Assembly: GCA_023701435.1 (NCBI GenBank)
Contig: JAMPXB010000006.1
Span: 1 to 64,000, forward strand
Reading direction: 5' to 3'
Source: Bacteriovoracaceae bacterium
Lineage (GTDB): Bacteria > Bdellovibrionota > Bacteriovoracia > Bacteriovoracales > Bacteriovoracaceae
Length of the DNA stretch: 64,000 nt
Position 1 is the first letter of the stretch. Each line of letters starts with the position of its first letter. This document shows, one piece after another, positions 13,700-33,716 of this stretch. The notes under the pieces are model-generated. The model was not told the DNA's origin. It was given only the letters and a program-made list of their open reading frames with translations, and did not search any database. Both the position numbers and the translations under genes were made by a program.

Positions 13700-14845
13700 T
13701 CAAAGATGGAATTTCTTCTTCTGTTTGTAACTTCGCCAGGTCCTGTCAAGTGTGCTGTGTCCCATCCAGATCGAAATGTTCTCAATGGTGTTGCCCTTTG
13801 AAAGCATGAGATCAGTAAAGCCCTTCCTTCCGCCATACAGGTCAATGTCTTTTGAAAAGTAATGCCTCATCGTTTTGATTAAAGGTCTTTTGAAATTTCC
13901 CGACTGGATGATTCTCAAAGCGAACTCTTGTTCCCGGTACAAAACTGGAATGGGCTTCCAGCGATCCTCAGGTGGAAGAGCAATAATCTTAGTTTGATAA
14001 ACCCAAAAGATTTTTCTACCGACAGTCGGCGCTTCTATTCTCCGAAGTTCAGAGTCATGAAGATTATCGATTTCCTGAGGCCTGAGTCCCAACCAAACAG
14101 AAATAAAAAGCCAGTTGAAATTTGCTTGATTGATTCTTCCACGAGCTTCATATAGGTCTTCGGGTAGAAGTGGGTCTGAAGCCTTACGACTGTTTCTATT
14201 CTTCTCATAGTGAGCATCCAACAATCTTTGTCTTTCATACCCACGTGGACGAGTCACAGGAAGAAAAGGTTTTGCCAGTTTGCGGCAAATAAAATAACCC
14301 CAGGCATTTACCAAACTTAATATTGAGGTCATGTAGCTCATGCTGATCTTTTGCTCATAGAAATAATCATAAATTTCTTTATTGTAATAGTACCATTCGG
14401 ATGGATCTATTTTTAGTGACACAATCATTCGTTGAGCTGCTTTCCACTTTGAACGAGCATGAGAACTCCTTCGTCTTCCTTTCTTAGTTTCTGCATCTCT
14501 TGATTTTAGAAACCTAATTTCAAATTCTTCAACGAATTCAATCGGCAAAACTGAATCATATTTCTTCTTATTATTGTCTTCCTCTATTGCAATTCTTCGA
14601 ACTCTCTCTTCTTGTCGTTTCAAAAAGTCTTGAGCATTTAATTGCCTTGCTCTCACCCGTGCTTCACCAAGAGTCATCATTTTATGAAATCCCAGTGTGC
14701 GCCAGCGATCAGGATCAACATCCCATTCTTTCTTGGCCTTAATAGCGTTGGATTGTTTTGTGTCTTGTAATTTGTATGAAACGAATTGAAGCTTCCACCT
14801 TGGATCAGATTTCTTCCAAGGTAAGGCGCGCACATAGTACCCCAT
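13700..14845 (-). CDS. Tyrosine recombinase (island integrase)
   Basis: A 381-aa recombinase. An N-terminal arm-binding part (residues 1-110) is followed by a core-binding domain and a catalytic domain with Arg in WLGLRPQEIDNL, YGGRKGFTDLML (the H-x-x-R position, with Tyr where His is usual), and GHSTLDRTWRSY carrying the final His and nucleophile Tyr. GGGAG precedes the ATG. It is a paralog of the truncated copy at 6402-7104. The upstream 110 bp holds a strong hairpin and dispersed repeat copy B, candidates for its attachment or regulatory region. It probably moves the surrounding defence cluster. Confidence 0.8.
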   Translation of the reverse strand: MGYYVRALPWKKSDPRWKLQFVSYKLQDTKQSNAIKAKKEWDVDPDRWRTLGFHKMMTLGEARVRARQLNAQDFLKRQEERVRRIAIEEDNNKKKYDSVLPIEFVEEFEIRFLKSRDAETKKGRRRSSHARSKWKAAQRMIVSLKIDPSEWYYYNKEIYDYFYEQKISMSYMTSILSLVNAWGYFICRKLAKPFLPVTRPRGYERQRLLDAHYEKNRNSRKASDPLLPEDLYEARGRINQANFNWLFISVWLGLRPQEIDNLHDSELRRIEAPTVGRKIFWVYQTKIIALPPEDRWKPIPVLYREQEFALRIIQSGNFKRPLIKTMRHYFSKDIDLYGGRKGFTDLMLSKGNTIENISIWMGHSTLDRTWRSYKQKKKFHL

Positions 14846-19119: not shown

Positions 19120-19318
19120 ATTATGGAGGATATATGCAGGCAAGAATAAACCCTGATTTGATGTGGACCTAAGGCTGTTAGGCAACTCCGCAATAAAACC
19201 AGGGCTCATGCTATTTGGAAGTTTCATGTTCTCAGGGTTTTTTGTGGTCGTCAATATCAGGTTGAAATGCAGCCGTATTTCCTCCCAATAAATCCTAATT
19301 CTCCAAAGGAGAATCGAA
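19120..19318 (+). promoter_or_regulatory. Structured leader of hydrolase operon with micro-ORF
   Basis: The 200-nt leader contains a 12-codon ORF at 19134-19172 (MQARINPDLMWT) with a strong ribosome site (GGAGG, 4 nt before ATG). The last codons of this ORF lie in a small hairpin CCTAA-GGCTG-TTAGG (19168-19182). Further on, CCAGGG at about 19200 can pair back with CCCTG in the micro-ORF, and a T6 run sits at 19230. This resembles a translation-coupled attenuator, but no known riboswitch is recognised. Confidence 0.35.
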
Positions 19319-21010
19319 ATGAATAAGTTACTTACTACTACTTTCGTTACTGCTATCAGACCTTCAACTTCTTTCTGTTCTTCCAAGAACACAAGCGCCG
19401 ACAAATTTGGAACCTTCCACCTGAATCTTCCGGATGGCAAATTCTATCCAGTAGAAGAACTCCACTATGAAATTGAAAACGGCAAGCGTGGCTTCAAAAT
19501 TATTCCTGTAGTGGATCGCGAATCGGATTTTGGTTCACCAGGTTATGAGAACGATCCGAAGACGCACACAATCGGGCTCAGCACGATTGTAAAAGGCTGT
19601 GAAACCCTTGATGAGGAAATCAGAAAAGCCTACGGAATTCAAGAAGGCGCGGAGTTCGTCGCTGTCATGTCTTATCAACATCACGAGAACGATACCGGAT
19701 CACTTCAAGAATTAGCAGATCATAATTTCTTGAAGCTGGAAAATTCACAGACTCACTCGGCCCTGTACATCGGTAATGGTAGAACCAGAAACTCACCCTA
19801 CAACTATCATGGGAAGAGATTGCAGGTATCAGGGTACCCTGCGAACATTTACGTGATTAAGCCAGACGGTATTCCTACAGAAGTATTCCTGTTGAACTGG
19901 TTTGTTGCTTCAAAACTGATTAACGAAGCCGGTGGGCACGTCAAATTTCCTCAGGACTACAAACTCGATAACTATCACCTGATTTCAATGAAGGAAGTAA
20001 TGAACCACTTCAGAGGATGGATGGACCCTAATTGGGTTAATCCTGAATATCCTGGTGCAAGTTTCCATGAACTCCTTACTGCTCAAAACGTTTTCGCACT
20101 ATACTGTTGTGAGTTCACTACGTTCACGCTGAATCTGGCCCTTAATCTACCATTCAACTTAAAAGGGTTTCAGAGTGTTTTTGGTCAAGCCGAAGGACGT
20201 GAACTCTGGAAAATTACAGAGAGAACATGGAAAGAACTAACCGGCGAAAATATTCCCGTAGTGAGTGACTTTACCCCTCTGTGGAAACAACAATCGCTTC
20301 CTGCTAACACAAATGAGACTGGAAAAGGTCTCGCGTTTAAACCTCAGAACACAGCTGATATTATTTCATGCTTCATGAGAATGTACTGCCCATGGTATGC
20401 ATTAGGTGTCGGTCTGAGTTCTACGATCCTTCTATCATTCATTCCTGAAGTGATGAAAAGAACAGGCCTTGAAGATAAGGATCTGCTTCCTCTTTTCATT
20501 GAAGCTGTGAATGAGATGGCTTTCCATGCATCACTCGTAGATGGTTTCACGGTTGAAGCTATCCAGAAAGAAATTGAAACTCACGTTTCAGCGACACTGC
20601 CTCAGATCGCCAGCCTGGTCACTTCTTCTGTGAAGTCACAGATGAATCGCCCTGACACTGTGAAGAGAAGAAGAATGCTCACTGAAAACGGTCTTCCATC
20701 TCAGGAAAGAGCATTCATTATGTACTCAGAGAGCGTCCAGTTGATTCTAAACCAAGCTGACAACATCGAACCGAAACAATCGATTCATGACCAATTGGAG
20801 AATGATCTCGAAGGAAGAAGCTTCGAAACGAATGCGAAGTTCTACTCACCTCCTGCGATCTATCACAGAATTGCTACCGGCATATACCCCGCGAACTCGC
20901 TCATCAAAGTTAAAGCGGTAGGAACTGTAATGGACGTGAGAGACGTCGAAGTTCATGGCGAAACTGTTCAACCGTCAGTTACTAACAATCAAGTCACAGG
21001 GAGAAAGTAA
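19319..21010 (+). CDS. Permuted NlpC/P60-like hydrolase (YiiX-type), 563 aa
   Basis: AAGGAG precedes the ATG. Residues 112-275 resemble the permuted papain-like (YiiX/YaeF) fold: an EFVAVMSY strand, the His motif THSALYIGNG near 146, and about 117 residues later ALYCCEFTTFTLNLAL with Cys 263/264 as nucleophile. Such enzymes cut amide bonds in cell-wall peptides or transfer/hydrolyse acyl groups. The C-terminal 300 residues are helical and unassigned, with one hydrophobic segment (WYALGVGLSSTILLSFI). There is no classical signal peptide. It is the first gene of an operon with a lipase and a nuclease, one base from the lipase start. The call rests on motif order only. Confidence 0.5.
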   Translation: MNKLLTTTFVTAIRPSTSFCSSKNTSADKFGTFHLNLPDGKFYPVEELHYEIENGKRGFKIIPVVDRESDFGSPGYENDPKTHTIGLSTIVKGCETLDEEIRKAYGIQEGAEFVAVMSYQHHENDTGSLQELADHNFLKLENSQTHSALYIGNGRTRNSPYNYHGKRLQVSGYPANIYVIKPDGIPTEVFLLNWFVASKLINEAGGHVKFPQDYKLDNYHLISMKEVMNHFRGWMDPNWVNPEYPGASFHELLTAQNVFALYCCEFTTFTLNLALNLPFNLKGFQSVFGQAEGRELWKITERTWKELTGENIPVVSDFTPLWKQQSLPANTNETGKGLAFKPQNTADIISCFMRMYCPWYALGVGLSSTILLSFIPEVMKRTGLEDKDLLPLFIEAVNEMAFHASLVDGFTVEAIQKEIETHVSATLPQIASLVTSSVKSQMNRPDTVKRRRMLTENGLPSQERAFIMYSESVQLILNQADNIEPKQSIHDQLENDLEGRSFETNAKFYSPPAIYHRIATGIYPANSLIKVKAVGTVMDVRDVEVHGETVQPSVTNNQVTGRK

Positions 21011-21889
21011 ATGTTACTACTTCAAAAAGAAACAATTACAACTGTAGACTTCGACCTATCACTTTCTCTTCTCTTCGCCAGGCTTTCAAGCCTGGCGTAT
21101 GAAAGATTTGAAAATGATCAAGCGGCATCATTAATGACCAAGCTCAGTGAATTAGGTTTCAGATACCATTCACATTTTTCTGTTCAAAACACCCAGGGCT
21201 TTGTGGCCAAGAACGAGAAGTTCGCAGTAATTGTTTTCAGGGGAACCGAGCAGGACCTTTACGATATCCTTACCGATATCAAAGCTCGCTTAAAGGACGG
21301 TGGACACGAAGGATTCTTCGGAGCCTTTGAAAGTGTGAAGTCTCACATTGAAACTGCCGCTCAAGAGCTTTACGGAACTCCCATTTACGTCACTGGACAC
21401 TCGCTGGGAGGAGCTATCGCGAAGGTTGCCATCAGACAGATGGCTGAATCATTCCAAGCCTGCTATACCTATGGTTCTCCAGCGATCTGTACCAAAGAGA
21501 AAATCGAAGGCTTTAAGGTTCCGGTTTTCCGGGTGGTTAACTGTGGAGACGTAGTACCAAGAATTCTTTCGTTGAGTCCATTATTCATTGTTATGCTTCA
21601 GCTAGGTCTCTGGCTATGGAAGCAGGTTCTGAAGCTCTTTAAACGCGATTACACAAGGGTCGATTCATGGTTGATGGGTCTAAACATTCTGTCCACAGAT
21701 GTCGTCAAATACGTTCATTTTGGAACTCTGTTTTGCTTTGACGAGACTGGAACGTTTATTCCTGATGCCTCTAAGGAACAAAGCGTTTTCAATCAGGCCC
21801 TATCTAAGAACATGAAATCGGCATTTGAGGATCACATGATCGATAAGTACATCTCTAAGCTCGATGCGCTTTTCGCAAGGGGGCGCTAG
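21011..21889 (+). CDS. Class-3 lipase
   Basis: A 292-aa alpha/beta hydrolase of the fungal-type lipase 3 family: FRGTEQDLYDILTDIKA at residues 77-95, then VTGHSLGGAIAKVA with nucleophile Ser near 130, a YTYGSPAI strand, and VNCGDVVPRI with the acid Asp. A hydrophobic stretch at 195-213 (LFIVMLQLGLWLWKQVL) may insert in membranes. It would hydrolyse acylglycerols or phospholipids. The start directly follows the upstream stop, and the stop overlaps the start of the nuclease gene, so translation of the three is coupled. Confidence 0.85.
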   Translation: MLLLQKETITTVDFDLSLSLLFARLSSLAYERFENDQAASLMTKLSELGFRYHSHFSVQNTQGFVAKNEKFAVIVFRGTEQDLYDILTDIKARLKDGGHEGFFGAFESVKSHIETAAQELYGTPIYVTGHSLGGAIAKVAIRQMAESFQACYTYGSPAICTKEKIEGFKVPVFRVVNCGDVVPRILSLSPLFIVMLQLGLWLWKQVLKLFKRDYTRVDSWLMGLNILSTDVVKYVHFGTLFCFDETGTFIPDASKEQSVFNQALSKNMKSAFEDHMIDKYISKLDALFARGR

Positions 21890-22668
21890 TGAAGCCATTT
21901 TATCTTCTAGTTATCCTCCTTTTCGTTTCGTGTAGTACGACTCAAACGTCTCAACCGGTTAAAACGAAGCAGCTAACAAGCTGCTTCGTCACCAGTGATG
22001 ACCTAGATGCTCTCTTGACTGGCGAGGACCTAATGCACCTGAAGAATAAGTATTACGATGTCGTATATAACAACAAAAGATCTCAACCAGATCTTGTTGA
22101 GTATAAGATGAAGTATTCAAAGGAAACTCACACACTGAATCGTGGAGTTGATTTTACGAATCGATTCAAAGTCGATCCCAGAGTTACCCGATCAGCAGAT
22201 GACAAGTCTTACCTAAGAAGTGGATGGCAAAAAGGGCATCTGGCACCTGCTGAAGACTTTAGCTTTGAAGTAGAGGCAGCAACGGACACATTTCTTTATT
22301 CAAACGTTTCACCTCAGTATCCGAGCTTTAACATGCATGGATCATGGGTAAAACTTGAAAAGAAAGTGAGATCTATCAGCGAATCAGGTTTAGTCCAGGT
22401 ACTAACTGGGCCACTTATGTTTGATGGCAGAAGAACAAATGAAAACGACAACTCTCCTGAGGTCCCTACGGTGTTCTTTAAAGCAATTGTCTCAGATTCA
22501 GACAATCGATGTGAAGTCAGCATCTTTGTTCTTAAAAACGATAAGTCATCAAAGGATTATTGCGAAGACAATGTTTATGACTCCTTTAAAGACAATTTGA
22601 CCCTTAAGAGAGTCACTGGAAATCGTCAGTTAACGAATGCCAAATTTTGCGAAATCACTTCACATTGA
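21889..22668 (+). CDS. DNA/RNA non-specific endonuclease, lipoprotein
   Basis: A 259-aa protein with a lipobox (LLFVSCSS, Cys at 15), so lipid-anchored in the envelope. The nuclease core has GWQKGHLAPAEDFSF near residue 105, where KGH replaces the usual DRGH that activates water, and YSNVSPQYPSFNMHGSW with the metal-binding Asn. These enzymes of the NUC1/EndA family degrade DNA and RNA outside the cytoplasm. It ends the three-gene hydrolase operon, followed by a hairpin. GTG is the likely start given the overlap with the lipase stop. Confidence 0.85.
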   Translation: MKPFYLLVILLFVSCSTTQTSQPVKTKQLTSCFVTSDDLDALLTGEDLMHLKNKYYDVVYNNKRSQPDLVEYKMKYSKETHTLNRGVDFTNRFKVDPRVTRSADDKSYLRSGWQKGHLAPAEDFSFEVEAATDTFLYSNVSPQYPSFNMHGSWVKLEKKVRSISESGLVQVLTGPLMFDGRRTNENDNSPEVPTVFFKAIVSDSDNRCEVSIFVLKNDKSSKDYCEDNVYDSFKDNLTLKRVTGNRQLTNAKFCEITSH

Positions 22669-22676
22669 GTTTACCT

Positions 22677-22712
22677 TATATCAGGGAGGTTAAGCCTTCC
22701 TGGTATATTTCT
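22677..22712 (+). terminator. Terminator of hydrolase operon
   Basis: TATATCAGGGAGG and CCTTCCTGGTATA form a long stem with G-U pairs around TTAAG, followed by TTTCTT. It sits 9 nt after the nuclease stop. The remaining 90 bp up to the convergent integrase gene is AT-rich, shows no tRNA, and may hold the attachment site. Confidence 0.6.
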
Positions 22713-22801: not shown

Positions 22802-23971
22802 TCAAATTGATATTAAAGAAATCTGATTAGTAATCCCACGCTCATCAATCCCAGCCAGCCTCACATATCTAGCCATCGTTTTGAGGTCCATCCACCCACA
22901 GACCTTCATTACTTTAATAGGTTGAACCCCTTCTGAAATAAGCTGAGTAGCAAAACAAGCTCTCAGAGTATGAAACCGTATTGGCTTAAGACCAATTAGA
23001 TTGCAAAAATCCTTCAACACGCGAGCCTGCTGTCCTTGCTTCCATGCTTCCAACCTTGTTAGTACAAAACCCTCTCCAATTGAGCTACGCCCTTTGTGGC
23101 AAGTAAAACAACCACCATCACCGCCGCCGCGGTTGTGAGCTGCGTGGTCATTATTAATGATACAATTAAGAATTGACCTTAACTCTTCGGAAATCGGCAC
23201 CGTCCTCCAGTAACCCGCCTTGGTACTTTTAAACTCCTTCGTCCGTTTATTATAAGACCGCTGAACCGTAATGAGACCCTTCTCCAAATCAACATCACTC
23301 CACTTGAGCGCAAACAACTCCCCATTTCTCATCCCTGTAAGGAGAGCGACAGCCCATATTGGATACCAAGGATGATTCCTCTCCCTCGCCTCCCTTAGCA
23401 GCAGCCGCAGCTCCTCCAGCTTCAAAATCTCTGGCTTCTTATCCTCCTTCAGAACAATCTTCAAACCAAAAACCGGGGAGTGAGTTACTCCCCTAATGAT
23501 CTTTGATTCAATTCCCCAGTTAAAAATCATGTTGATGGTGTTCTTGAGACGTTTCTGAAAAGCCTTGGTCCGTCCCTGGACCAACACCCTATCAAGCACC
23601 TCTCGCCCATCACCACGGCTGATCTCGGCTGCTGGCTTATCTAGCCAGTCCTTGGTCCAGGTATGCATCATCGAGATATAATCTGAGACAGTCGCAGGGT
23701 TGTACTTCCTATCCATGAAATATGGTGAATCAACGAAAGTGGCCCACTTATCAACTACCATACGCCATGTGAAGCCATGTCCTTCGCCGTGGGCCACTTT
23801 CATTGTCAGCTCCTTAACCAGAGCTTTCTCTGTCCTATGAGCTTCGGCCATTGTTTTAAGACCTGTTACACGTTTCTGAAATCGTAGATGAGGCATCGGA
23901 CGACTACGAAGGTTCACGTAAACAGAAAATCCCTTTTCGCCCTTGGGCCCTGTCCATTCACTTATTGCCAT
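22802..23971 (-). CDS. int: ICE tyrosine integrase
   Basis: A 389-aa integrase with an N-terminal arm-binding beta domain (residues 1-60), a SAM-like core-binding domain (70-160), and a catalytic domain with Arg in LLTGMRNGELFALKW, FHTLRACFATQL (H-x-x-R) and CGWMDLKTMARYV (Trp replacing the second His, then nucleophile Tyr). An unusual insertion GGGDGGCFTCHKG near residue 285 adds a CxxC pair, which may bind zinc. GGAGG lies before the ATG. It recombines attP with a chromosomal site. It lies at the left edge of the ICE, next to an excisionase-like gene. Confidence 0.9.
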   Translation of the reverse strand: MAISEWTGPKGEKGFSVYVNLRSRPMPHLRFQKRVTGLKTMAEAHRTEKALVKELTMKVAHGEGHGFTWRMVVDKWATFVDSPYFMDRKYNPATVSDYISMMHTWTKDWLDKPAAEISRGDGREVLDRVLVQGRTKAFQKRLKNTINMIFNWGIESKIIRGVTHSPVFGLKIVLKEDKKPEILKLEELRLLLREARERNHPWYPIWAVALLTGMRNGELFALKWSDVDLEKGLITVQRSYNKRTKEFKSTKAGYWRTVPISEELRSILNCIINNDHAAHNRGGGDGGCFTCHKGRSSIGEGFVLTRLEAWKQGQQARVLKDFCNLIGLKPIRFHTLRACFATQLISEGVQPIKVMKVCGWMDLKTMARYVRLAGIDERGITNQISLISI

Positions 23972-24156: not shown

Positions 24157-24447
24157 TTAAGAATTTGTAAAACCTATAGCATCTGCATTAACTTCAACAT
24201 AGGGACGATCTTTAAAAACTCGCTCAACAACATGGCCCCTTACAATGACTGGGTTACCTTTTCTGAGAATTTTCGCCCAATGTTCACATTCTTTCTCCCA
24301 CATTACGATATTGTGCCAGCGAGGGTTTTCCTCACCTTCTACCTGCTCGGCTAAAGTGAAAGTACAAAAAGACTTTTCTCTTTTTGTACGACGAAGTTCT
24401 GGATTCTTTCCCAGACGTCCATATATCGTTACTTCTTGTCCTTTCAT
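24157..24447 (-). CDS. ssb: Single-stranded DNA-binding protein (plasmid type)
   Basis: A 96-aa OB-fold protein starting VTIYGRLGKNPELRRTK, with TFTLAEQVEG and RWHNIVMWEKECEHWAKILRKGNPVIVRG, the pattern of bacterial SSB. It lacks the long acidic C-terminal tail of chromosomal SSB, which is usual for short element-encoded copies. In an ICE it would coat the transferred single strand and aid its replication in the recipient. It follows the AT-hook-like gene by 17 nt and precedes the excisionase gene. Confidence 0.85.
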   Translation of the reverse strand: MKGQEVTIYGRLGKNPELRRTKREKSFCTFTLAEQVEGEENPRWHNIVMWEKECEHWAKILRKGNPVIVRGHVVERVFKDRPYVEVNADAIGFTNS

Positions 24448-24464
24448 AAAATGACTCCTTCTTA

Positions 24465-24833
24465 TTAGTTAATCCCAAGCTTCTTAATTAGAAATTCACC
24501 GAGGGAGAGATTCTGACCAGTCTTCTTATTATGTTCATCAAGAAGACGTTGCACTTTTTCCATCTCGCCAAGGCTCATTTCTTGAATCTTCTCGAGGTCT
24601 TTGTCTGTGAGCTTGCTAACGGCATAAAGACAGACATCCTTAAAAAGGATTACGCGCCCGTAATCCTTTTCATTGCATTTCCTTAGAAGACCAAAAATCA
24701 AATCCAATGATTCTTTTTCATTACTTAGATCCACGAAAAATTTGGTCTGCTCTTGATTAAGACTTACTTCCTTTTTTTGATTTTTGGGCTTCCTTCCTCT
24801 TTTTTTTATTGTTTCCATTTGTATTTCATTCAT
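24465..24833 (-). CDS. AT-hook-like relaxosome accessory candidate
   Basis: A 122-aa protein. Residues 9-20 (KKRGRKPKNQKK) match the AT-hook core RGRP/RGRKP that binds the minor groove of AT-rich DNA. The rest is helical and acidic with no known domain. Its gene starts 19 bp from the palindromic region at 24852 and is the next gene after the relaxase on the same strand. The position fits a small protein that helps the relaxase recognise oriT, as in many transfer systems, but that role is inferred. Confidence 0.55.
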   Translation of the reverse strand: MNEIQMETIKKRGRKPKNQKKEVSLNQEQTKFFVDLSNEKESLDLIFGLLRKCNEKDYGRVILFKDVCLYAVSKLTDKDLEKIQEMSLGEMEKVQRLLDEHNKKTGQNLSLGEFLIKKLGIN

Positions 24834-24851
24834 TATCTTCTCCCTTTTTAA

Positions 24852-24987
24852 TTTCCTGCCTGCTTAGTTGTTCTCATTCCCCCGCACGTAGAATATGACT
24901 CCATCTATCTACACTACGTGAGAGAGAGGGAGTCACATTCGGAGTGCGCGATTCCTTATTGGTTTCAACGATATAGCAGGCAGGAAA
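24852..24987. other. Candidate oriT (nested inverted repeats)
   Basis: The 195-bp gap between the AT-hook gene and the relaxase gene is full of inverted repeats. The outer arms are a perfect 13-bp pair TTTCCTGCCTGCT / AGCAGGCAGGAAA (24852-24864 and 24975-24987). Inside, 24883-24902 and 24929-24948 form a 20-bp pair with 4 mismatches, including GAATATGACTCC / GGAGTCACATTC (11/12). A third pair CACGTAG / CTACGTG lies at 24885 and 24914. Nested repeats beside a relaxase gene are typical of oriT. A role in expression is also possible. Confidence 0.6.
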
Positions 24988-25028
24988 AAAGTGTACTGAT
25001 CGCTAGTTAATAACTGTTTGCTATTCAT

Positions 25029-25763
25029 TTAGACCCTTTTTAAAACTTCCGCGAGAGTGACATTCTTCCCTTGAATGACTCCCATGATGTCTTCTGGTTG
25101 ATGATCACCAGAAGACATCAGAGGATGATAAAAGAACATAAACTTACTTAAGTTTTCTTTACCAAGTTTCTCTTCGGCCTGAGCGATGTATTTCTCCATT
25201 AAGTTTTGGGATGGAAAAAAGTACATCACATAGTGGTAGAAGGTGCTGTCTTCATACTGCTTCATTTTCTCCGTGAGACGCTGGTTGCTTTTTCTTGTCA
25301 GCTCAAGTTCAAAGGCGATCTTGAACTTGTGTCCCTTTTTTTCTAGGTAGAGAATGGCATCAGGGATAATTTTGTAAGTTAGCCTAAAATTTCTTTTGTC
25401 ATGAATCTCATGCTCAAGCTCAACGTCATCCAGCATCCCACGCTCATAAAGAGATCGAGTGATTTCTGAAACTTTGAGATCATGGATTAGAGTTTCATTA
25501 GAAAGCGAAGATGGGTTCTCCTTGAGCGATAGCTGGCCCTCTCCGATAGGGCTGAGATAGACAAATTTCTTGCGACTATAAGGGTCTCGGTATCCCTCCA
25601 GTATTTTCTTTTTCTGTAGTTCTCTGATGATGCGGTAAAAATTGTGATACTTCGGTGCACGTAAACACTCCTTCCTTAATGAATTAACATCCATAACCCT
25701 CCACTTAAGAAGTGGTGTGAGGTAATTTAAATGAAGGCTATTAAGGTTCATTTTTAGATCCAT
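25029..25763 (-). CDS. MOBC-type relaxase candidate (replication-relaxation family)
   Basis: A 244-aa protein with an N-terminal winged helix (residues 10-75) and a PD-(D/E)xK-like core: IPDAILYLE with PD at 134-135, and IAFELELTRK with E152, E154 and K158. The replication-relaxation family (PF13814 as I recall) includes CloDF13 MobC, a relaxase related to restriction endonucleases that nicks without a classical three-His Tyr enzyme. The gene lies directly upstream of VirD4, like the MobC/MobB pair of CloDF13, and next to the oriT candidate. AAGGAGG precedes the ATG. No other relaxase is seen in the element. Confidence 0.65.
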   Translation of the reverse strand: MDLKMNLNSLHLNYLTPLLKWRVMDVNSLRKECLRAPKYHNFYRIIRELQKKKILEGYRDPYSRKKFVYLSPIGEGQLSLKENPSSLSNETLIHDLKVSEITRSLYERGMLDDVELEHEIHDKRNFRLTYKIIPDAILYLEKKGHKFKIAFELELTRKSNQRLTEKMKQYEDSTFYHYVMYFFPSQNLMEKYIAQAEEKLGKENLSKFMFFYHPLMSSGDHQPEDIMGVIQGKNVTLAEVLKRV

Positions 25764-25778
25764 GCTTCCTCCTTGGGT

Positions 25779-27167
25779 TTAGTCCACAATTGATGGTTGT
25801 TTGGCCTTAGGAGCCTTGCTTTTTCTCATGACATCCCACTTTCTATTTCTGATGTTAATGAGATTAACTTTTGTTGGGCCTTGCCTTAAGAGAATACACT
25901 GGCCAATATCAAGGCCCTTAATGATATCTGGGTGAACAACAAGCTCGAACACTTCACGTTCACTTCCTGACTTTTGTTGCTCTCCGTTTTCAATTCTATA
26001 GGTTTGCTTCTTCGCTAGAATTGTCCCTACAGCATCTGCAAAAAGCGAGGCAGAGCTATCAAGTCGCTGCTTCAGAATAAAAAGATTTCCGGCGTTCTCA
26101 ATTACTTGTTTGGTGAGGTCGGGATTTACTCGGTCAATATCTGATGCTGTTTGAACTGCAACGGTTAGCTCCATACCAGCACCACGACACTTATTTTGAA
26201 GTTCGATGAACTCAGGAGTTACCAGTGAGCCAAACTCATCAAAGTAAACGCTAATAGGATTTTCTAGTCCTTTATTCTCTCCAACAGCGAGAGTCTTATA
26301 GGAATTATAGAGAAGCTCACCCAAGAAGAGTTTTCCTACTGCTGAAGCCGTTTCACCGTAACCTTGTGTCGATAGGCCAATATATAGACAGGCCTTTTCT
26401 TCACGAATCTTTGACAGAGTTAAAGCACCAGGCCCCTCAGCATTGAGGATCTTTCCAAAGTCTGAAACTAATATGGCCTCAAGTTTAGCAATAAGACCTA
26501 TGTTCTCTTTGCTTTCAAGGCGTACTAATTCATCAAAGACCTTCTTAAGAGTGAAGGTTTCACCATCCTTTTCCAGTTTTTGAAGGGCCTTGGTTAAACT
26601 TCTTCGTGAAGCATCTCGATAATATGGCTCTGACCAGTCAAAAGAGCGCATGATACGATCAACGACTTGGTTTACTGTTCCTTCCCTAAGTGGATTAAGA
26701 GAGATTGAGTCTTTAAAGTGTTCAGAGAAAATATAGCAAGGCTTATTGTACTGCTCACAAATCTTCTGAAACGTAGTTAAGGCCTCCATATCTCCTTTGG
26801 GGTCAAAGAAGATAATGGGTTTATCTTTACGCAAAGAGTGTTCCTGGAGGATGCTGATAAGATTTGTCTTACCAAAGCCAGATGCTCCGACAATGAAGCT
26901 ATGGCGGCGAAAATCCACTTCCTTAAGTAAAAACTCTTTTCTATTTTTAGTATCAATCCCAAGTGCGTCTTGAATTTGGGTTGTTGTTCTCACGTTTAAT
27001 GCCTTTCTGTTAATTTGTTCGAGTGGTGGGTTCTTCTTTAAAATCTTCATCCAGCCCCACTTGAAGACTTCCTTTCCAAGGTCAAAGAGCAGGACGCATA
27101 ACTCATGGAAGATTTCATAGATAGGTGTGAATAAATCTAGCTGTGGCTGTTGATTTTTATTTCTCAT
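25779..27167 (-). CDS. virD4: VirD4/TraG-like type IV coupling protein
   Basis: A 462-aa protein with a Walker A loop GASGFGKTN (about residue 100), DPKGDMEALT, a Walker B in ISVYFDEFGSLVTPEF, and AVQTASDIDR. These are hallmarks of the VirD4/TraD family, which hands the relaxase-DNA complex to the T4SS channel. The N-terminal 50 residues form a weak membrane-proximal region (ELCVLLFDLGKEVFKWGW) rather than two clear helices. I choose the ATG at 27167 (GGAG upstream), which overlaps the lipoprotein stop by 11 nt; a longer frame from 27218 lacks a ribosome site. Confidence 0.9.
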   Translation of the reverse strand: MRNKNQQPQLDLFTPIYEIFHELCVLLFDLGKEVFKWGWMKILKKNPPLEQINRKALNVRTTTQIQDALGIDTKNRKEFLLKEVDFRRHSFIVGASGFGKTNLISILQEHSLRKDKPIIFFDPKGDMEALTTFQKICEQYNKPCYIFSEHFKDSISLNPLREGTVNQVVDRIMRSFDWSEPYYRDASRRSLTKALQKLEKDGETFTLKKVFDELVRLESKENIGLIAKLEAILVSDFGKILNAEGPGALTLSKIREEKACLYIGLSTQGYGETASAVGKLFLGELLYNSYKTLAVGENKGLENPISVYFDEFGSLVTPEFIELQNKCRGAGMELTVAVQTASDIDRVNPDLTKQVIENAGNLFILKQRLDSSASLFADAVGTILAKKQTYRIENGEQQKSGSEREVFELVVHPDIIKGLDIGQCILLRQGPTKVNLINIRNRKWDVMRKSKAPKAKQPSIVD

Positions 27168-27663
27168 AAATGTGCTCCCATGCTTTAAATGGACTGATCT
27201 GGATGGTCCTATTGTCAATTTCTAGTGTTCTGGCATCAGATTCGTACTCGATGATGAACTGTTTTTTTACTTTGCCTTCAAGTTCCGTTGGTAGCTTCTC
27301 AAGGGGGACTTCATACTTCTTAACAGGTTTAAAGTTCACTTCAGGCCTTATATGCTTAAGCTCTGGTGAAAAATCAAAAAGTGGTACTTTCTTGTGAAGT
27401 TGACCCGGTTCATCCAGAAGCATTGGGTCTGCTGTTTTCTTTTTAGGTTCATCATGAAAAAGATAAGCTAGACCTGCCCCCGCAATTGCTCCGATCACTC
27501 CCCCCATGTAAGCGTTCTTACCCTTGGAATACTCATTAGGTGAAAACACCACTCCGCCAGCTCCCCCGACAATTCCGCCAATGATGGCCCCGGCGCCGAC
27601 ACTTTTCTTAAGTGATGAGCAGGAGGTAAGAAAAATAAGAAAGACTAAAAGACTACATTTCAT
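27157..27663 (-). CDS. Glycine-zipper lipoprotein (VirB7-like position)
   Basis: A 168-aa lipoprotein: lipobox FLTSCSS (Cys at 15), then a Gly-zipper GAIIGGIVGGAGGVV with a second Gly-rich helix GGVIGAIAGAGLAYLF near residues 25-67, of the kind that spans or tightens in the outer membrane. The C-terminal half is soluble. In the T4SS gene order it sits between VirB10-like and VirD4, where VirB7/TraV-like lipoproteins anchor the outer core. That functional parallel is positional. Confidence 0.65.
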   Translation of the reverse strand: MKCSLLVFLIFLTSCSSLKKSVGAGAIIGGIVGGAGGVVFSPNEYSKGKNAYMGGVIGAIAGAGLAYLFHDEPKKKTADPMLLDEPGQLHKKVPLFDFSPELKHIRPEVNFKPVKKYEVPLEKLPTELEGKVKKQFIIEYESDARTLEIDNRTIQISPFKAWEHIYEK

Positions 27664-28405
27664 TGACTGCCTCCATGAAATAAATCAAGACTTCCTCTCC
27701 GGCCTCGATAGTGACAACAGGTTCAGCGGTTTTCATTTCATCTAACAAAATGTCAGAGGTGGTTCGTCCTGATTCAATGAGGCCTTGAAGGACTTGATTC
27801 TTAGTTGAGTCATCTCTTACGGAACCAAAAGCCGAACCGAGCCGAGATTGTGCGCCAGAGAGCATCCCTTGAGCGAAGTCACTTATGACGGCCCCTGTGA
27901 TAAGTTGGTCCTTGGCATCGTCATAGACTCCCTCAAGACCACTACTTCCATCCGTGTTAAGTAGCTGGGCCTGAATGGGAATTTCCTTATCAGTTGTCAC
28001 CATCTTGTTACAAAGTGTTAAAACACGCTTATTTTGAGTGGTTCCCTGACATGAAAATTTAGTCTTAAGCGGTAGGCCCTGATTGGGATGGGCAATGACA
28101 ATCACGGGACTCGATAAATTCGTTGAGACAATCGAATTTAGAAGAGTACCACGGAAGACTTTACCCGTGAGGATTTTAGCCCTTTGTTCCCATATAACAG
28201 GAACTCCACTCCGACTTTGAAGAAGTGAATTGAGCCGCTTGTTGTTTTCAAGAATTTTGTTGAGAATCTCGCCATGATTATCCCCCCTTTTTATGGTTTT
28301 CTGGTGAGGCGTTGTTACAATCTTGTTCATTCTACTTATCCTTGCTGTCTGGGCTTTGAGGTTAAAGCTCACGCAGGCGATCATTATTACCGCTATATTT
28401 TTCAT
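27653..28405 (-). CDS. virB10: VirB10/TraB-like T4SS protein
   Basis: A 250-aa protein with an exported N-terminus (signal ending at FNLKAQ). Its C-terminal part resembles the VirB10/TrbI beta-barrel: AKILTGKVFRGTLLNSIVS, PVIVIAHPNQGLP..TKFSCQGTTQNKRVLTLCNKMVT, a Gly-rich middle stretch, and VVTIEAGEEVLIYFMEAV at the end. Cys residues in the middle may form a disulfide. It lacks the N-terminal inner-membrane helix of classic VirB10, so it is either a shortened form or one with a cleaved signal. It overlaps the lipoprotein gene downstream by 11 nt. Confidence 0.65.
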   Translation of the reverse strand: MKNIAVIMIACVSFNLKAQTARISRMNKIVTTPHQKTIKRGDNHGEILNKILENNKRLNSLLQSRSGVPVIWEQRAKILTGKVFRGTLLNSIVSTNLSSPVIVIAHPNQGLPLKTKFSCQGTTQNKRVLTLCNKMVTTDKEIPIQAQLLNTDGSSGLEGVYDDAKDQLITGAVISDFAQGMLSGAQSRLGSAFGSVRDDSTKNQVLQGLIESGRTTSDILLDEMKTAEPVVTIEAGEEVLIYFMEAVNEM

Positions 28406-28425
28406 CTGATCTGTCCTTTAAGCTC

Positions 28426-28896
28426 TTAATTCAGGATTCGCAGTCCCTCATAGAGGATCGGAACCCCTTTAGATAAATACTCCCGATGCTTAATCCTCAT
28501 CCCGTTGACCGTGACTTCTGATGATCTGTTGTTAATAAAAAGGATAGAGTTATCTCCTTCCAAGATTTCATAGTCCTTGGTCTTGATCTTCTTGGTGAGA
28601 GCATGGTTCATGACACCATTTTTAACCTCAACGAACTGATGAGGATTCACTTTGGCCTCTTTTAGATCAAAGTAGTACTTGCTGTTTTTTGTAATCACCA
28701 AGAGATTAGAATAGGCCCCATCAATTTTGGGCTTAATCGCCAATGTCTTGTGATTATTGGTCACTTGAAAAAACAGCTCCTCCTGACTTCCGCCGTATAG
28801 ATAGCTTTGAATTTCCGAATCAAAACTAAGAGTCGTGAGAAGATTTAGACCCAAGAAGACGGTGGTCATCTGATTCATTAGGATATGAAAGATCAC
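28426..28896 (-). CDS. virB9: VirB9/TrbG-like T4SS protein
   Basis: A 156-aa protein with a signal-like N-terminus and the VirB9/TrbG pattern KTLAIKPKIDGAYSNLLVITKNSKYYFDLKEAK (residues 52-80), in which the invariant NLxV.T and Y.F.L strand is clear. This domain forms the outer-membrane core complex with VirB7 and VirB10. It is about half the length of a classic VirB9, so the C-terminal domain that binds VirB7 may be reduced. It overlaps the VirB8-like gene by ATGA. Confidence 0.65.
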   Translation of the reverse strand: MIFHILMNQMTTVFLGLNLLTTLSFDSEIQSYLYGGSQEELFFQVTNNHKTLAIKPKIDGAYSNLLVITKNSKYYFDLKEAKVNPHQFVEVKNGVMNHALTKKIKTKDYEILEGDNSILFINNRSSEVTVNGMRIKHREYLSKGVPILYEGLRILN

Positions 28897-29342
28897 ATTT
28901 CCTCCTTCGCTGGAATCTCATCCAGTTGTATAAGCTTGTAATAGAATGGATTACTATCACTTCCCTGAAGCTTGATCTTAAAGGCCGTGAGCACACCTTC
29001 AGATTTAAGAATAATTTTACAGGCACCCACTTCAAGAGACTTCACCTGAAAAATCTTATCAATCGTCATTGAAAAGTTGTCTTTCTCTGCGATTTTTATC
29101 ACTTCATTATGAACGACATGGGAATTAGGCGTTCCTCCTGCAAGTCCCACAAAAGCAAGGCGACAAATTTCTTCAGCAAGAGGTCTTTCTTCAAAAATAG
29201 AACCACCTTGATAAAGAAAGTAGCGTCTATCGAAAAATTGCAAGATAACCGCAGTCAAAGAAATCAAAATCGTAATAGCGAGAACTATTTTGAGCTTTTT
29301 ATTTTCTTTGGTAAAACTTGCTTCAAAATTATCGTAGTTCAT
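28893..29342 (-). CDS. virB8: VirB8/TraE-like T4SS protein
   Basis: A 149-aa protein with one N-terminal membrane helix (KIVLAITILISLTAVILQFF, residues 18-37) after a short cytoplasmic region, then a periplasmic domain. Bitopic topology, size and place between VirB6-like and VirB9-like genes match VirB8/TraE, which links the channel parts. It is shorter than VirB8 (about 230 aa) and closer to TraE-like forms (about 190 aa). The downstream gene overlaps by 4 nt and the upstream by 14 nt. Confidence 0.6.
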   Translation of the reverse strand: MNYDNFEASFTKENKKLKIVLAITILISLTAVILQFFDRRYFLYQGGSIFEERPLAEEICRLAFVGLAGGTPNSHVVHNEVIKIAEKDNFSMTIDKIFQVKSLEVGACKIILKSEGVLTAFKIKLQGSDSNPFYYKLIQLDEIPAKEEM

Positions 29343-30678
29343 TTGTTTTCTCCTTCTTTCTTGGGCGAATCACCGGATTCTGAACTCGTGGAGCAGGGGC
29401 AACTGTTTTTCTCTTCGCTGTCACAGGAGCTGATACATTTCCCTTTTCAGGATTCACCGGACGATGAACTTTATGTGGATTAACCGTATTTCCATCAATG
29501 CCGTATTTCTTCTTAATGGCCTCGCCCTTATGAGGGTTAATGCTGTCCCAATACTTTTGATTGAATTTGAAGTTCTGTTTCTTGAGTTTAACAAAATCTT
29601 GAGTTGGTTCGGCATTGGTGGCAGGTTTTAATTCTCCTAGATGTGCTTTCCCTTGTTGGGCCTGTGCTGAAGACTTAGAAGTCTTAGTATCCTTCGCTTC
29701 CTGACTATTCTTCCTTACTTGAGTTTGATTATTCTCCTTAACCGAATCCTTTCCTTGCTTCTCGCTCATCTTCATTGAGTTTGACCTCAAATTGGCTCCC
29801 GTGGATCTTGATTGAAGGGAGTTTCCTTTTCGGGCACTGAAACTGGACTTACCAGTAAAGCGATCTTTCATTTTCGTAAGGAATGGGAGAAGGGCCATCG
29901 TTTTCATCCCTGAACTCACTACCATTGTTCCCATCTTAGAACCGAAGAAATGGATACCATCTCCCTTAATCATGCCGTAGCTAATAAGCGGACTAATAAG
30001 GAGAAGCAAAGTGACTCCGAATAACCAGATGATAGTGTCAACCTTTGTAACGATAAGATCACTTCCAAGGGCCGTTTCATCAATGCTGTTTCCAACGAGA
30101 GCGAGAATCGCCACAATCACAAAGGGCATAATCATGCACCATAGACTTGCTTGCACAGTTCCCTTGAGAGCATCTTTCGTCCAACCGAGAAAATACAGAA
30201 TGGCAGTGACACCAGAAAAGACATAAGTCAGATGGTACACGCTGGAATAGATGAGCTTTAAAAGCCAAATAAAGACTTTAGCAAGTAGGAAGAAAGCCGT
30301 TGCAAGAAGATCATTCAGATTCGGAACTACAAGCGACTGGATAAAATTCCATTCTTTCTTTTCATTAGTTTTAACCTTAGTGTGATACCACTTCTTAACG
30401 AACAGATTTCGAGGACTCACTTTTTTAAGCGTATAGGTCGCACTATCAAGAGCTAACGCCGAGGCTGTGGTATGAAATTGATAAAATGCCCCCATAAAGA
30501 CCGTGATAAGAAGAAGCTTCTTAATTACTCCCCCAAAATCCATATCGCCAAAGTATTCCAAGATGAGAGCAATAGTGAACACGGGGGCAATAAAGTAAGT
30601 CGCGATACTTGTCATCTCTTTGTAGAGCCGAAAAACACTTGGTTCCTCAATAAGTAACATCTCTTGCAGGATATTCAT
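29329..30678 (-). CDS. virB6: VirB6/TrbL-like membrane protein
   Basis: A 449-aa protein with five to seven membrane helices in residues 20-250 (YFIAPVFTIALILEYF, LLATAFFLLAKVFIWLLKLIY, ASLWCMIMPFVIVAILALVG, TIIWLFGVTLLLLISPLISYG) and a long soluble tail (280-449) rich in Ser, Lys and Gln. This is the layout of VirB6/TrbL, the inner-membrane pore. The tail, with repeated Lys/Thr/Asn/Gln segments (SLQSRSTGANLRSNSMKMSE), is low-complexity and may be disordered. It overlaps neighbours on both sides by 4 to 14 nt. Confidence 0.75.
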   Translation of the reverse strand: MNILQEMLLIEEPSVFRLYKEMTSIATYFIAPVFTIALILEYFGDMDFGGVIKKLLLITVFMGAFYQFHTTASALALDSATYTLKKVSPRNLFVKKWYHTKVKTNEKKEWNFIQSLVVPNLNDLLATAFFLLAKVFIWLLKLIYSSVYHLTYVFSGVTAILYFLGWTKDALKGTVQASLWCMIMPFVIVAILALVGNSIDETALGSDLIVTKVDTIIWLFGVTLLLLISPLISYGMIKGDGIHFFGSKMGTMVVSSGMKTMALLPFLTKMKDRFTGKSSFSARKGNSLQSRSTGANLRSNSMKMSEKQGKDSVKENNQTQVRKNSQEAKDTKTSKSSAQAQQGKAHLGELKPATNAEPTQDFVKLKKQNFKFNQKYWDSINPHKGEAIKKKYGIDGNTVNPHKVHRPVNPEKGNVSAPVTAKRKTVAPAPRVQNPVIRPRKKEKTNELR

Positions 30679-31334
30679 TTCTTATCCTTTGAAATGCCGT
30701 AAGCTTTTTCTTTCTCGATCTGCTCTAAACGCTTTTCTTCCAGTTGTTCCGCCATGAGGCGATTACTAGTGGAGAGCTTTTCTAAAATTTCAAGCTGGGT
30801 GTTGTGCATATCCACATTTTGTTCATAAATCATGGCCGTATTCTGGGCAGTAAGCTGTGTGGCCCGACCTGTCGTTTTCGCTTTGACGGATTTATCCACC
30901 TGAGACTTAGCAATCTGACCCTTACGAACATTTACTTTTTTTTGAATTTTGACCTGCGCTTTAGTCTTTGATTCATCCGATTTTATGATGGCGTACTCAC
31001 GCATGAGTTCCTTCATCTCTGCCATAGAGTATTTAAGCTCACGAATGGCCCAGTTTAAGTCGCCAATATTTGCCACTTCTTTTTTAGCGGCAAGTGATTC
31101 TGCGATATAAAGCACACGCTCAGCCCTAAAGTATTCATCCTGAAATAACTCGTTATACTGCTGCATCTTCGCCGTGTACTTTTCCGCATTACTGACAACC
31201 TTCTCTAATTCATTAAGCTGACTGGCCGTTGTCGTGACCAGCTCTACCAAGAGTGCCGTATCAGAACTGATAATCTGAGCATAACTTGGAAGTGTGAGAA
31301 GCATAATTCCTGCACTTAAAAGTATCTTTTTCAT
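30675..31334 (-). CDS. virB5: VirB5/TrbJ-like periplasmic protein
   Basis: A 219-aa exported protein (signal ending LPSYAQ near residue 20). The rest is almost all amphipathic helix with a coiled-coil pattern (LNELEKVVSNAEKYTAKMQQYNELF, then RLMAEQLEEKRLEQIEKEKAYG). VirB5 and TrbJ proteins are helical bundles of this sort, made at the pilus tip or next to the ATPase. It overlaps the VirB4 gene and VirB6 gene by 4 nt each, so it is part of the T4SS operon. Sequence identity to TrbJ is low by eye. Confidence 0.6.
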   Translation of the reverse strand: MKKILLSAGIMLLTLPSYAQIISSDTALLVELVTTTASQLNELEKVVSNAEKYTAKMQQYNELFQDEYFRAERVLYIAESLAAKKEVANIGDLNWAIRELKYSMAEMKELMREYAIIKSDESKTKAQVKIQKKVNVRKGQIAKSQVDKSVKAKTTGRATQLTAQNTAMIYEQNVDMHNTQLEILEKLSTSNRLMAEQLEEKRLEQIEKEKAYGISKDKK

Positions 31335-33199
31335 GAACAGCTCCAGTACGGATTTTTAATGATCGTGAAATTCTTCATTGCGTCTTGAAACGGAAGAAAC
31401 TTGCCACCACTCGCAAGATATTCTTCAAACTGCTGATTATCATCACGGGCACTTGTCATCACCTGATACTCAAGTGGTGTTGGGTAGTAACGAATAGGCT
31501 TTTTAATCGATTCAGTTAAAAGCAGGAACTCGCTGTAAGCCCCTTTTATAGATTGCACTGAATCTAAGAGTGACTTGGTGTGAGCATCAATGAATTCGGA
31601 TGTCGATAGACTCTGCCGAAACAAAAACTTAAAGTAAGTGTTTTGAATAATCACACGCCCAAGCTGAGATTCTGAAAAGTCATCTAGGTTTTGCGAGATC
31701 GCAACCGCACTTGCCTTATGTTTCCTGAAGGTTCTAAAGCACTCTGCGATGTAATCCGCATTTTTAAGGAGTAAGTGCCAGCACTCATCAAAGATAAAAA
31801 TCTTCTCTCCCTCAAGATGCTTAAAATACTCAATAAGATAAATAATCAGTGGAGCCTTCATTGCCTCTGGATAGAGAGAGAAGTCACAGTAAGTAAAATC
31901 ATTTAGAGACAAACTTTCGTCCGTGAAAAATTCTTCAATCTCATTGAAGTAATAGCGGATTCCTGAGAATGATTTTTCAAGCTCTGTTAAAAACGCTTTA
32001 AAGCTTGTGATCTTTCCATCCTCAGAGATCGTTTTAATCACTTCATAGAGTCTCCCCTCCTCGCGGCGAGCTAGCTTTTCATCCATCGTCGCCATTACAA
32101 ACTCTTTAAGGTAGCGAGGGTTCTTAAACTGATAAGGATTAAACTTTTGAGAGAGAATCGCTCCATCATGAAACTTGGCGTTTTTAGCAAATGAGTTTCC
32201 AAGATCGAGAACAATCGCCTTTGTTCCACGCCCAAGTTCCTGCCAGAGGAGCTTATTTGCCATCATGGATTTTCCTTGCCCCGATGAACCAGTGATAAGG
32301 ACGTTGTAGTTCAAGGCCTCGGCGCAAAACAGATCAAAAACGACAGGCTTTCCACTGCGAGAAGTAAGCTCAAATCCTTCATCCATCACAAAATCTCGAT
32401 GATATGGAATAAGGTGGCACAGATAGTCCGAAGGCACGTATAAGGCCCGTTTAAAGCTGGCAGGCACTCCAGGAACAAGACTCTGATAGAAATGGGACAG
32501 TCCACTAGCTTCTACATGGAGCTTGGCCCCCTTCCCTCTAAAATCATAGAGCAGTTTATCCGTGAGTTTATCCAATTCGCTTTTAGTTGAGGCCTTTAAT
32601 AGGAAAAACATCTCTACACTGAATAGACCCTTCTCATCACTAGTGACGGCATCAAAGAGTTCTTCCGCCTGGTGGTAAGCATTCTCTGAATCCAAATCCC
32701 GCATCCCTTTAAACAGGGCTGAGAAATGGAGTTTCCGCTTCATATTGATGGAGCTTTTGGCCTTCAATTTATCTATCTTTTTAAAGTTGATAACAAAATC
32801 GGCCCATGAACAAGGATCAAGCTTCTCTAAATTCAGTGGAAAATCTACAACCGAGAGCAGTCGGACAAAGTCATTGCCACAGGTAAGATAATTCTCATAG
32901 AAATGAGCATCGACTTCATCACGACCTGTGAAGGTTGAAATTGGGGTTTCTTGTGGAAGAACTTTTCCATGAGTAAATCCAATCTCTCCAAAAGTATTGA
33001 TATAAAGATTCCCATCTAGCCAGTATATTTTAAAAGCTGAATCCGTATTAACCAGATCACTTCCAAGTTCTCTGAATACCCTTTCTTGGTTGTCAGCATC
33101 TAGTCCATCCATATCAGGAGGAAGAATTTGGAAGAAGGAACTAACTTCTCCCGTAAGAGAAGTTAGTTCATGTCCATTTACAGAAAATATCGGTGTCAT
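31331..33199 (-). CDS. virB4: VirB4/TraC-like ATPase
   Basis: A 622-aa ATPase with a Walker A (GSSGQGKSMMANKLLW, about residue 305), Walker B (KIFIFDECWHLL, about 465), and the VirB4-specific KHKASAVAISQNLDDF stretch. It lacks the CagE-like start of some VirB4 proteins. VirB4 powers pilus assembly and substrate transfer on the inner membrane. It is the most conserved T4SS gene and confirms the operon. It lies between VirB3-like and VirB5-like genes with 4-nt overlaps. Confidence 0.9.
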   Translation of the reverse strand: MTPIFSVNGHELTSLTGEVSSFFQILPPDMDGLDADNQERVFRELGSDLVNTDSAFKIYWLDGNLYINTFGEIGFTHGKVLPQETPISTFTGRDEVDAHFYENYLTCGNDFVRLLSVVDFPLNLEKLDPCSWADFVINFKKIDKLKAKSSINMKRKLHFSALFKGMRDLDSENAYHQAEELFDAVTSDEKGLFSVEMFFLLKASTKSELDKLTDKLLYDFRGKGAKLHVEASGLSHFYQSLVPGVPASFKRALYVPSDYLCHLIPYHRDFVMDEGFELTSRSGKPVVFDLFCAEALNYNVLITGSSGQGKSMMANKLLWQELGRGTKAIVLDLGNSFAKNAKFHDGAILSQKFNPYQFKNPRYLKEFVMATMDEKLARREEGRLYEVIKTISEDGKITSFKAFLTELEKSFSGIRYYFNEIEEFFTDESLSLNDFTYCDFSLYPEAMKAPLIIYLIEYFKHLEGEKIFIFDECWHLLLKNADYIAECFRTFRKHKASAVAISQNLDDFSESQLGRVIIQNTYFKFLFRQSLSTSEFIDAHTKSLLDSVQSIKGAYSEFLLLTESIKKPIRYYPTPLEYQVMTSARDDNQQFEEYLASGGKFLPFQDAMKNFTIIKNPYWSCS

Positions 33200-33447
33200 T
33201 TTTTACCTCGACAAATGTCTGAGAGATGGAGTTCTTTTTTACGAGGAACCAATAGGCCTATGAAATCGAAATTCTTTTTCATTATTTTCATCAGTCCGAT
33301 CATCATGACACTTAAGGCAATCGTAATAAGAGGATTCAGTCCTAGAATCATGGCCATATAAAGAATAACCATGAGACCCGCGATATCAGAGAATTGAAGT
33401 CCATGAAAGGAGGGATTGGTTTTGAGAAACTGAGGAAACTTTTTCAT
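33196..33447 (-). CDS. virB3: VirB3/TraL-like membrane protein
   Basis: An 83-aa protein with two adjacent membrane helices (residues 20-60: SDIAGLMVILYMAMILGLNPLITIALSVMMIGLMKIM) in a hairpin, and charged ends. Size, topology and place before VirB4 match VirB3/TraL, which associates with VirB4 and the pilin. It overlaps both neighbours by 4 nt. Confidence 0.65.
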   Translation of the reverse strand: MKKFPQFLKTNPSFHGLQFSDIAGLMVILYMAMILGLNPLITIALSVMMIGLMKIMKKNFDFIGLLVPRKKELHLSDICRGKK

Positions 33448-33710: not shown

Positions 33711-33716
33711 CTCTCC

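What the first reader, a model, noticed from the sequence alone, without database searches (positions are those of the whole stretch)
19120..22712. Three-hydrolase operon: papain-like, lipase and nuclease, one leader
The three genes abut or overlap and have one terminator. They encode a permuted NlpC/P60-like protein (His 146, Cys 263/264), a class-3 lipase (GHSLGG), and a lipoprotein DNA/RNA non-specific endonuclease (KGH). Together these could attack peptidoglycan or acyl bonds, membrane lipids and nucleic acids. I know no described cassette of exactly this set. A predatory or competitor-killing role is inference from organism type and gene content.
Basis: partly seen in the sequence, partly recalled or inferred. 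Interest (0 to 1): 0.65.

Follow-up and report, generated by a model that had tools for sequence, protein, structure and literature searches.

The report
Mobile three-hydrolase operon with RNA leader
A predatory-type bacterium carries, in the cargo bay of a mobile DNA element, an operon of a new cysteine-enzyme family, a lipase and a surface nuclease, preceded by a conserved folded RNA; it looks more like a defence or survival cassette than a set of prey-digesting enzymes.

Summary
The operon is real: P1 (563 aa), lipase and nuclease abut or overlap at 19319-22668 and share one terminator. The lipase (Lipase_3) and nuclease (Endonuclease_NS, lipoprotein) match curated families; P1 matches none. 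Across 18 family members, all found in Bdellovibrionota-type genomes, P1 keeps His146, a polar residue at 158, Tyr214 and Cys263 in the order of permuted NlpC/P60 (YiiX/LRAT) enzymes. The Cys is 263, not 264. The fold itself was not confirmed: Foldseek gave no papain-like match.

One other genus has all three genes in order. Three more genomes pair P1 with a lipase, one of them with a nuclease beside it. The five lipase-paired P1s lack signal peptides; the 13 secreted-type relatives stand alone. The cassette lies beside the integrase of a conjugative element, in a slot where three same-genus relatives carry AbiE genes.

New: the leader (about 19127-19281) folds into a three-way-junction RNA conserved in the second three-gene locus (67% identity, against 33-37% at third codon positions) and absent from Rfam.

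Predation or competitor killing is not supported: two of the three proteins have no export signal. I favour an ICE-borne defence or self-protection cassette; that function is inferred.

The parts
19127..19281 (+). Conserved structured leader RNA: outer stem AACCCUGAUUUGAUG/CGUCAAUAUCAGGUU, a hairpin CCUAA/UUAGG, a second arm CCGCAA/UUGUGG; begins with GGAGG and a short ORF that is not conserved as a peptide
   Evidence: 66.7% identity to the leader of the G141 cassette, against 38.7% for the 200 bp upstream and 33-37% at third codon positions of the genes; same fold in both, z -2.0 and -4.0; two double-sided pair changes; no Rfam match; found only in G000 and G141 among 369 genomes, apart from one weak hit judged chance
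19319..21010 (+). P1: 563-aa protein of a new family with a permuted NlpC/P60-like active site (His146, Asn158, Tyr214, Cys263); no signal peptide; helical C-terminal half
21011..21889 (+). Class 3 lipase (Lipase_3), Ser131-Asp180-His275, no signal peptide, hydrophobic segment around residues 185-203
21889..22668 (+). DNA/RNA non-specific endonuclease (NucA/EndoG family) with lipoprotein signal (FVSC, Cys15), His117 in KGH
22677..22707 (+). Rho-independent-type terminator of the operon
22802..23971 (-). Tyrosine integrase of the conjugative element, convergent with the operon
   Evidence: Phage_integrase E=8.4e-21; 77-83% identical integrase in same element of G004 and G015
24157..35627 (-). 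Core of the integrative conjugative element: SSB, Replic_Relax-type relaxase, TraG/TrwB-type coupling protein, TrbI/VirB10, VirB4-type ATPase and associated genes
   Evidence: syntenic with G004, mostly 64-81% identity
17495..18907 (-). Divergent HTH + ImmA/IrrE (Peptidase_M78) gene, candidate regulator or antitoxin; shares the intergenic region with the operon
13700..14845 (-). Tyrosine-recombinase-like protein marking the outer end of the cargo bay; 92% identical copy at the equivalent place in G004
   Evidence: recombinase assignment from sequence motifs only

Best explanation
The operon is cargo of an integrative conjugative element (ICE) and most likely a defence or self-protection cassette acting in the cell that carries it. 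P1, a permuted papain-like enzyme, and the class 3 lipase stay in the cytoplasm and would attack acyl chains of the cell's own inner membrane (or acyl-lipid targets there) when triggered. The lipoprotein nuclease sits on the periplasmic side of the envelope and would degrade incoming phage or rival-element DNA. The structured leader RNA would hold the operon at low expression until a signal arrives. Shown: operon, catalytic residues, lack of export signals on P1 and lipase, lipoprotein signal on the nuclease, cargo position, recurrence, conserved leader. Inferred: enzyme activities, targets, trigger, defence role and what the leader does.
For: The cassette lies beside the integrase of an ICE. 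In the same slot of related elements G004, G010 and G015 carry AbiE genes, and the window's slot also holds AbiE and two HTH-ImmA genes. G088 has its lipase-P1-nuclease group next to a coupling protein and relaxase of a related element; G070 has P1-lipase next to an integrase and an ImmA gene with its partner that are 40% and 34% identical to those in the window. All five lipase-paired P1s lack signal peptides while 13 solo relatives have them. The catalytic quartet is kept in all 18. Permuted NlpC/P60 enzymes have lipid-binding pockets (PMC3142127), and one, Tox-Act1, is a proven phospholipase toxin (PMC12994826). In G000, G141 and G088 the genome's second NS endonuclease is the one in or beside the cassette.
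Against: No PADLOC model matches the three proteins, and no phage-challenge data exist. G141 and G224 are not obviously in a mobile element. The nuclease is missing beside the pair in G070 and G224. AbiE in the slot shows what cargo sits there, not what this cargo does. The P1 fold was not matched by Foldseek. att sites were not found.
Confidence: 0.4

Rival explanations
1. Envelope or lipid maintenance cargo: P1 and lipase remodel or salvage phospholipids or acylated proteins in the host cell (acyl transfer or turnover), giving the ICE host a growth or stress advantage, and the lipoprotein nuclease scavenges or clears DNA.
For: Permuted NlpC/P60 enzymes include acyltransferases as well as phospholipases (PMC3142127; PMC12994826). 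Secreted P1 relatives are single chromosomal genes in non-mobile-looking contexts, which suggests a housekeeping ancestry.
Against: Cassette-type P1 is rare (5 of 369 genomes) and mostly in mobile settings; all 25 genus mates searched lack P1.
Confidence: 0.25
2. Predation or competitor killing: the three enzymes are released onto prey or rivals and attack cell wall, membrane and nucleic acids.
For: Relatives named in public records are mostly from the predatory phylum; the P1 family has secreted members; Tox-Act1-like enzymes are antibacterial effectors (PMC12994826).
Against: P1 and lipase have no signal peptide, and upstream in-frame extension is only 9 codons for P1. No effector-delivery domain was recognised by Pfam, NCBIfam or PADLOC. 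No immunity gene is evident. Absent from all genus mates searched, which presumably share the lifestyle.
Confidence: 0.12
3. ICE self-maintenance module: the set is an exclusion or addiction device of the element itself (blocks a second element, or kills cells that lose it), with the leader RNA or divergent HTH-ImmA gene as the control.
For: Position beside the integrase and the divergent HTH-ImmA gene; repeated association with conjugative or integrase genes.
Against: The cargo slot varies between related elements, so the cassette is not needed by the element. G141 and G224 show no element core nearby.
Confidence: 0.18

Closest known systems
[quoted passage not shown] PMC3142127, PMC12994826)
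   Same: His before Cys; polar third residue 12 positions after the His; conserved Tyr between them; Cys in YCxE at a helix start; predicted order strand, strand(His), strand, strand, helix, Tyr, helix(Cys)
   Different: No GD motif; no HMM, profile or Foldseek match; large insert between Tyr and Cys; extra N-terminal strands and a long helical C-terminal half with its own conserved motifs (Y-x-PP, GT)
Lipase_3 (class 3 lipases; nearest solved chains are fungal lipases such as 1dt3)
   Same: GHSLGG nucleophile elbow, Ser-Asp-His conserved
   Different: No signal peptide; extra hydrophobic segment; operon with P1
Endonuclease_NS (NucA, EndoG, EXOG)
   Same: KGH/RGH-type catalytic motif; ordinary member; chromosomal copies also present in all five genomes
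   Different: Lipoprotein, in an operon with P1 and lipase
AbiE and other defence or toxin-antitoxin cargo of ICEs
   Same: Occupies the same slot behind the integrase in sister elements
   Different: Unrelated proteins; no known defence model matches

Membership tests
Permuted NlpC/P60 papain-like enzymes (for P1) | Catalytic His precedes Cys (circular permutation) | tested here: met
   His146 and Cys263 invariant 18/18
Permuted NlpC/P60 papain-like enzymes (for P1) | Polar third residue after the His and a conserved Tyr before the Cys | tested here: met
   Position 158 is N/H/Q/D in 18/18; Tyr214 18/18; features as described in PMC3142127
Permuted NlpC/P60 papain-like enzymes (for P1) | GD motif on the first core strand | tested here: not met
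   No GD at the equivalent strand in P1 or most relatives
Permuted NlpC/P60 papain-like enzymes (for P1) | Papain-like fold | tested here: inconclusive
   Model pLDDT 74, pTM 0.80 with fitting order of elements but best Foldseek E 0.7-0.8, no papain-like hit; coordinates not available to measure the His-Cys distance
Peptidase_C92 (Pfam PF05708) | Profile match | tested here: not met
   No Pfam hit for P1 and none to this family for 12 relatives; hhalign aligns only the YCxE motif
Lipase_3 (PF01764) | Profile match over cut-off and Ser-Asp-His triad | tested here: met
   56.9 bits vs 22; S131, D180, H275 invariant in four paired lipases
Endonuclease_NS (PF01223) | Profile match over cut-off and catalytic His motif | tested here: met
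   112.7 bits vs 23; KGH aligned to RGH of EXOG
Integrative conjugative element | Integrase, relaxase, coupling protein and T4SS ATPase together | tested here: met
   syntenic element in G004
Integrative conjugative element | Identifiable att repeats | tested here: inconclusive
   No convincing flanking direct repeat in the window; ends not mapped in the full contig
Known anti-phage defence system | Match to a described system | tested here: not met
   No PADLOC hit for the three proteins
Known anti-phage defence system | Protection against phage | not testable with these tools
   needs experiment
Secreted predation enzymes | Export signals on the enzymes | tested here: not met
   P1 and lipase lack signal peptides by a hydropathy and lipobox heuristic; only the nuclease has one
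Known structured RNA family (leader) | Rfam match | tested here: not met

The most novel reading that the evidence does not exclude
A new element-borne immunity system in which a new permuted papain-like enzyme and a class 3 lipase form a cytosolic membrane-attacking pair, a lipoprotein nuclease guards the periplasm, and a dedicated structured RNA in the leader senses the invader or gates the system.
Probability: 0.2. Interest if true: 0.8.

Novelty: new variant of a known kind. Interest (0 to 1): 0.5.

Why it matters
If true, it adds a new cysteine-enzyme family, repeatedly paired with a lipase, to the arsenal carried by conjugative elements in bacteria of a predatory phylum, where few element-borne defences have been described (own knowledge). 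It also provides an uncatalogued structured RNA that is better conserved than the genes it precedes. The His146, Tyr214 and Cys263 positions, the lipase Ser131 and the leader stems give direct mutational tests.

Tried and rejected
(1) Pfam, NCBIfam, PADLOC, PHROGs and PDB sequence searches for P1, and PDB/Pfam for its family: nothing relevant. (2) First collection scans with single P1 in genome, viral, plasmid and phage collections: nothing; the phylum search and profile scan worked. (3) Single-sequence structure: useless, pLDDT 35; with 10 relatives 74, but no Foldseek match. (4) hhalign against Peptidase_C92: no significant alignment. (5) Two independent origins of the signal-less form: AU p=0.0006 with all rows, but the result vanished without two long-branch rows, so not claimed. 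(6) Plasmid lipases nearest to the cassette lipase: stand alone, no P1. (7) Leader RNA motif in viral contigs: 109 and 48 hits, about the number I estimate for chance; the RNA model found nothing in 43 of those loci. (8) A third leader RNA in G224 (E 0.008) overlaps the end of a coding frame and is on another contig than its P1; treated as chance. (9) Weak phylum hits to P1 in G063 and in G305/G306: the G063 hit lies in a HemN-like gene by its sequence, and the G305/G306 hits cover only 40-60 residues; not used.

Full report
Observation. The lipase and nuclease are clear members of Lipase_3 and Endonuclease_NS; P1 has no match in Pfam, NCBIfam, PADLOC, PHROGs or the PDB.

P1 family. A search of 369 genomes of the window's phylum found relatives of P1. 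A profile scan of one genome per species found nine loci, eight titled Bacteriovoracaceae, Bdellovibrionaceae or Bdellovibrionales and one titled only Proteobacteria. P1-family proteins come in two kinds. Thirteen are 590-894 aa with N-terminal signal-like segments and stand alone. Five (window, G141, G070, G224, G088) are 449-563 aa without a signal peptide and are always next to a class 3 lipase gene. Open frames leave room for at most about a dozen more codons in front of the starts of the window, G141, G070 and G224 proteins. Whether the signal-less form arose once or twice is unresolved.

Active site. Across all 18, His146, Tyr214 and Cys263 are invariant and position 158 is always polar (N, H, Q or D); Cys264 is not conserved. 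This is the quartet, in the order described for permuted NlpC/P60 enzymes (PMC3142127). The model made with ten sequences (pLDDT 74, pTM 0.80) places His146 in a strand and Cys263 at the start of a helix, in the expected order. Against this, the GD motif is absent, profile-profile alignment with Peptidase_C92 finds only YCxE, and Foldseek finds no papain-like structure. I therefore say that P1 works like a permuted papain-like enzyme with good support, but that membership of that superfamily is not proven. The permuted group tends towards lipid substrates; Tox-Act1 is a demonstrated phospholipase toxin (PMC12994826). Peptidoglycan is the less likely target.

Co-occurrence. G141, another genus of the same family, has P1-lipase-nuclease in the same order (48%, 39%, 31% identity). 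G070 and G224 have P1-lipase. G088 has lipase-P1 with a nuclease gene 0.8 kb away on the other strand. Every one of the five genomes also has an NS endonuclease elsewhere; only G000, G141 and G088 have a second one, and that is the one at the cassette. The P1-lipase pairing is thus the core and the nuclease a frequent third part.

Setting. The operon converges on a tyrosine integrase, and the next 11 kb encode SSB, a relaxase, a coupling protein, VirB10- and VirB4-like proteins. G004, G010 and G015 of the same genus have this integrase (72-83%); G004 has the whole core in the same order. The genes behind the integrase differ from genome to genome: AbiEi/AbiEii in G004 and G010, AbiEii in G015. 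In the window the slot holds the cassette, two HTH-ImmA genes (one with a partner protein) and AbiE. G088's cassette lies next to a coupling protein and relaxase of a distantly related element, and G070's next to an integrase and an ImmA gene plus partner like those in the window. None of 25 genus mates searched has P1. These facts point to mobile conflict-type cargo rather than a trait of the predatory lifestyle.

Leader RNA. The 155 bp in front of P1 (19127-19281) is 67% identical to the corresponding region in G141, whereas the 200 bp upstream are at background (39%), the genes are 45-55% identical and their third codon positions 33-37% (shuffled leader mean 43%, maximum 58%). Both sequences fold alone into the same overall architecture, a three-way junction (z -2.0 and -4.0). 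Two pairs changed on both sides while staying paired, and sliding the pairing destroys it; with only two sequences the shuffle control is not significant. No Rfam family matches. Among 369 genomes only these two have it, plus one weak hit judged chance. It is most likely a cis-acting control element of the operon; a trans-acting role is possible.

Mechanism. Two cytosolic acyl hydrolases or acyltransferases and one envelope nuclease, under a structured leader, carried by an ICE. The reading I favour is defence or self-protection of the carrying cell: inside-out membrane damage plus clearing of incoming DNA. The catalytic residues, localisation signals and setting are shown by sequence; substrates, trigger and defence function are inferred. 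Rivals are lipid maintenance, an exclusion or addiction device of the ICE, and, least likely, secreted predation enzymes.

Limits. Localisation rests on a hydropathy and lipobox heuristic. Genomes are mostly drafts without names. The phylum search does not exclude P1-lipase pairs in other phyla, since the whole-collection scans used the longer P1 forms.

Noticed in passing
window 55253-62613: Type I restriction-modification genes (HsdM, and HsdR of the HindI type) on the same contig, about 20 kb beyond the conjugative element core.
   Followed up: no
G000:C31:63907-65312 (just past the window end, partly in L096): A second tyrosine integrase and a small partner gene; the same pair (91% and 80%) sits in a multi-integrase region of G010:C7 and the small partner is 100% identical in G015, which suggests nested or tandem elements.
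   Followed up: partly
window 6439-6738 and 13725-14024: A 79% identical 300-bp repeat: a truncated second copy (6402-7055) of the recombinase-like gene at 13700-14845.
   Followed up: no
window 15178-16934: HTH-ImmA gene plus small partner, a pair that recurs (40% and 34%) right upstream of the P1-lipase pair in G070 (L038).
   Followed up: partly
window 4983-5624, 7143-8669, 12125-13623: RES-domain gene, IS3-type transposase pieces and an AbiEi/AbiEii pair in the outer part of the cargo region.
   Followed up: no
phylum genomes, e.g. L098-L117: YiiX-type Peptidase_C92 domains are very common in this phylum: 81 of 118 genomes, up to 8 per genome, many in 450-600 aa proteins.
   Followed up: no
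window 18928-18948: Palindrome GGCCGACATCGCGTGTCGGCC just upstream of the divergent HTH-ImmA gene: terminator or operator.
   Followed up: no
L038 2866-2996: The leader of the G070 P1-lipase pair also folds better than shuffles (z -2.3) but does not match the RNA model of the window's leader.
   Followed up: partly
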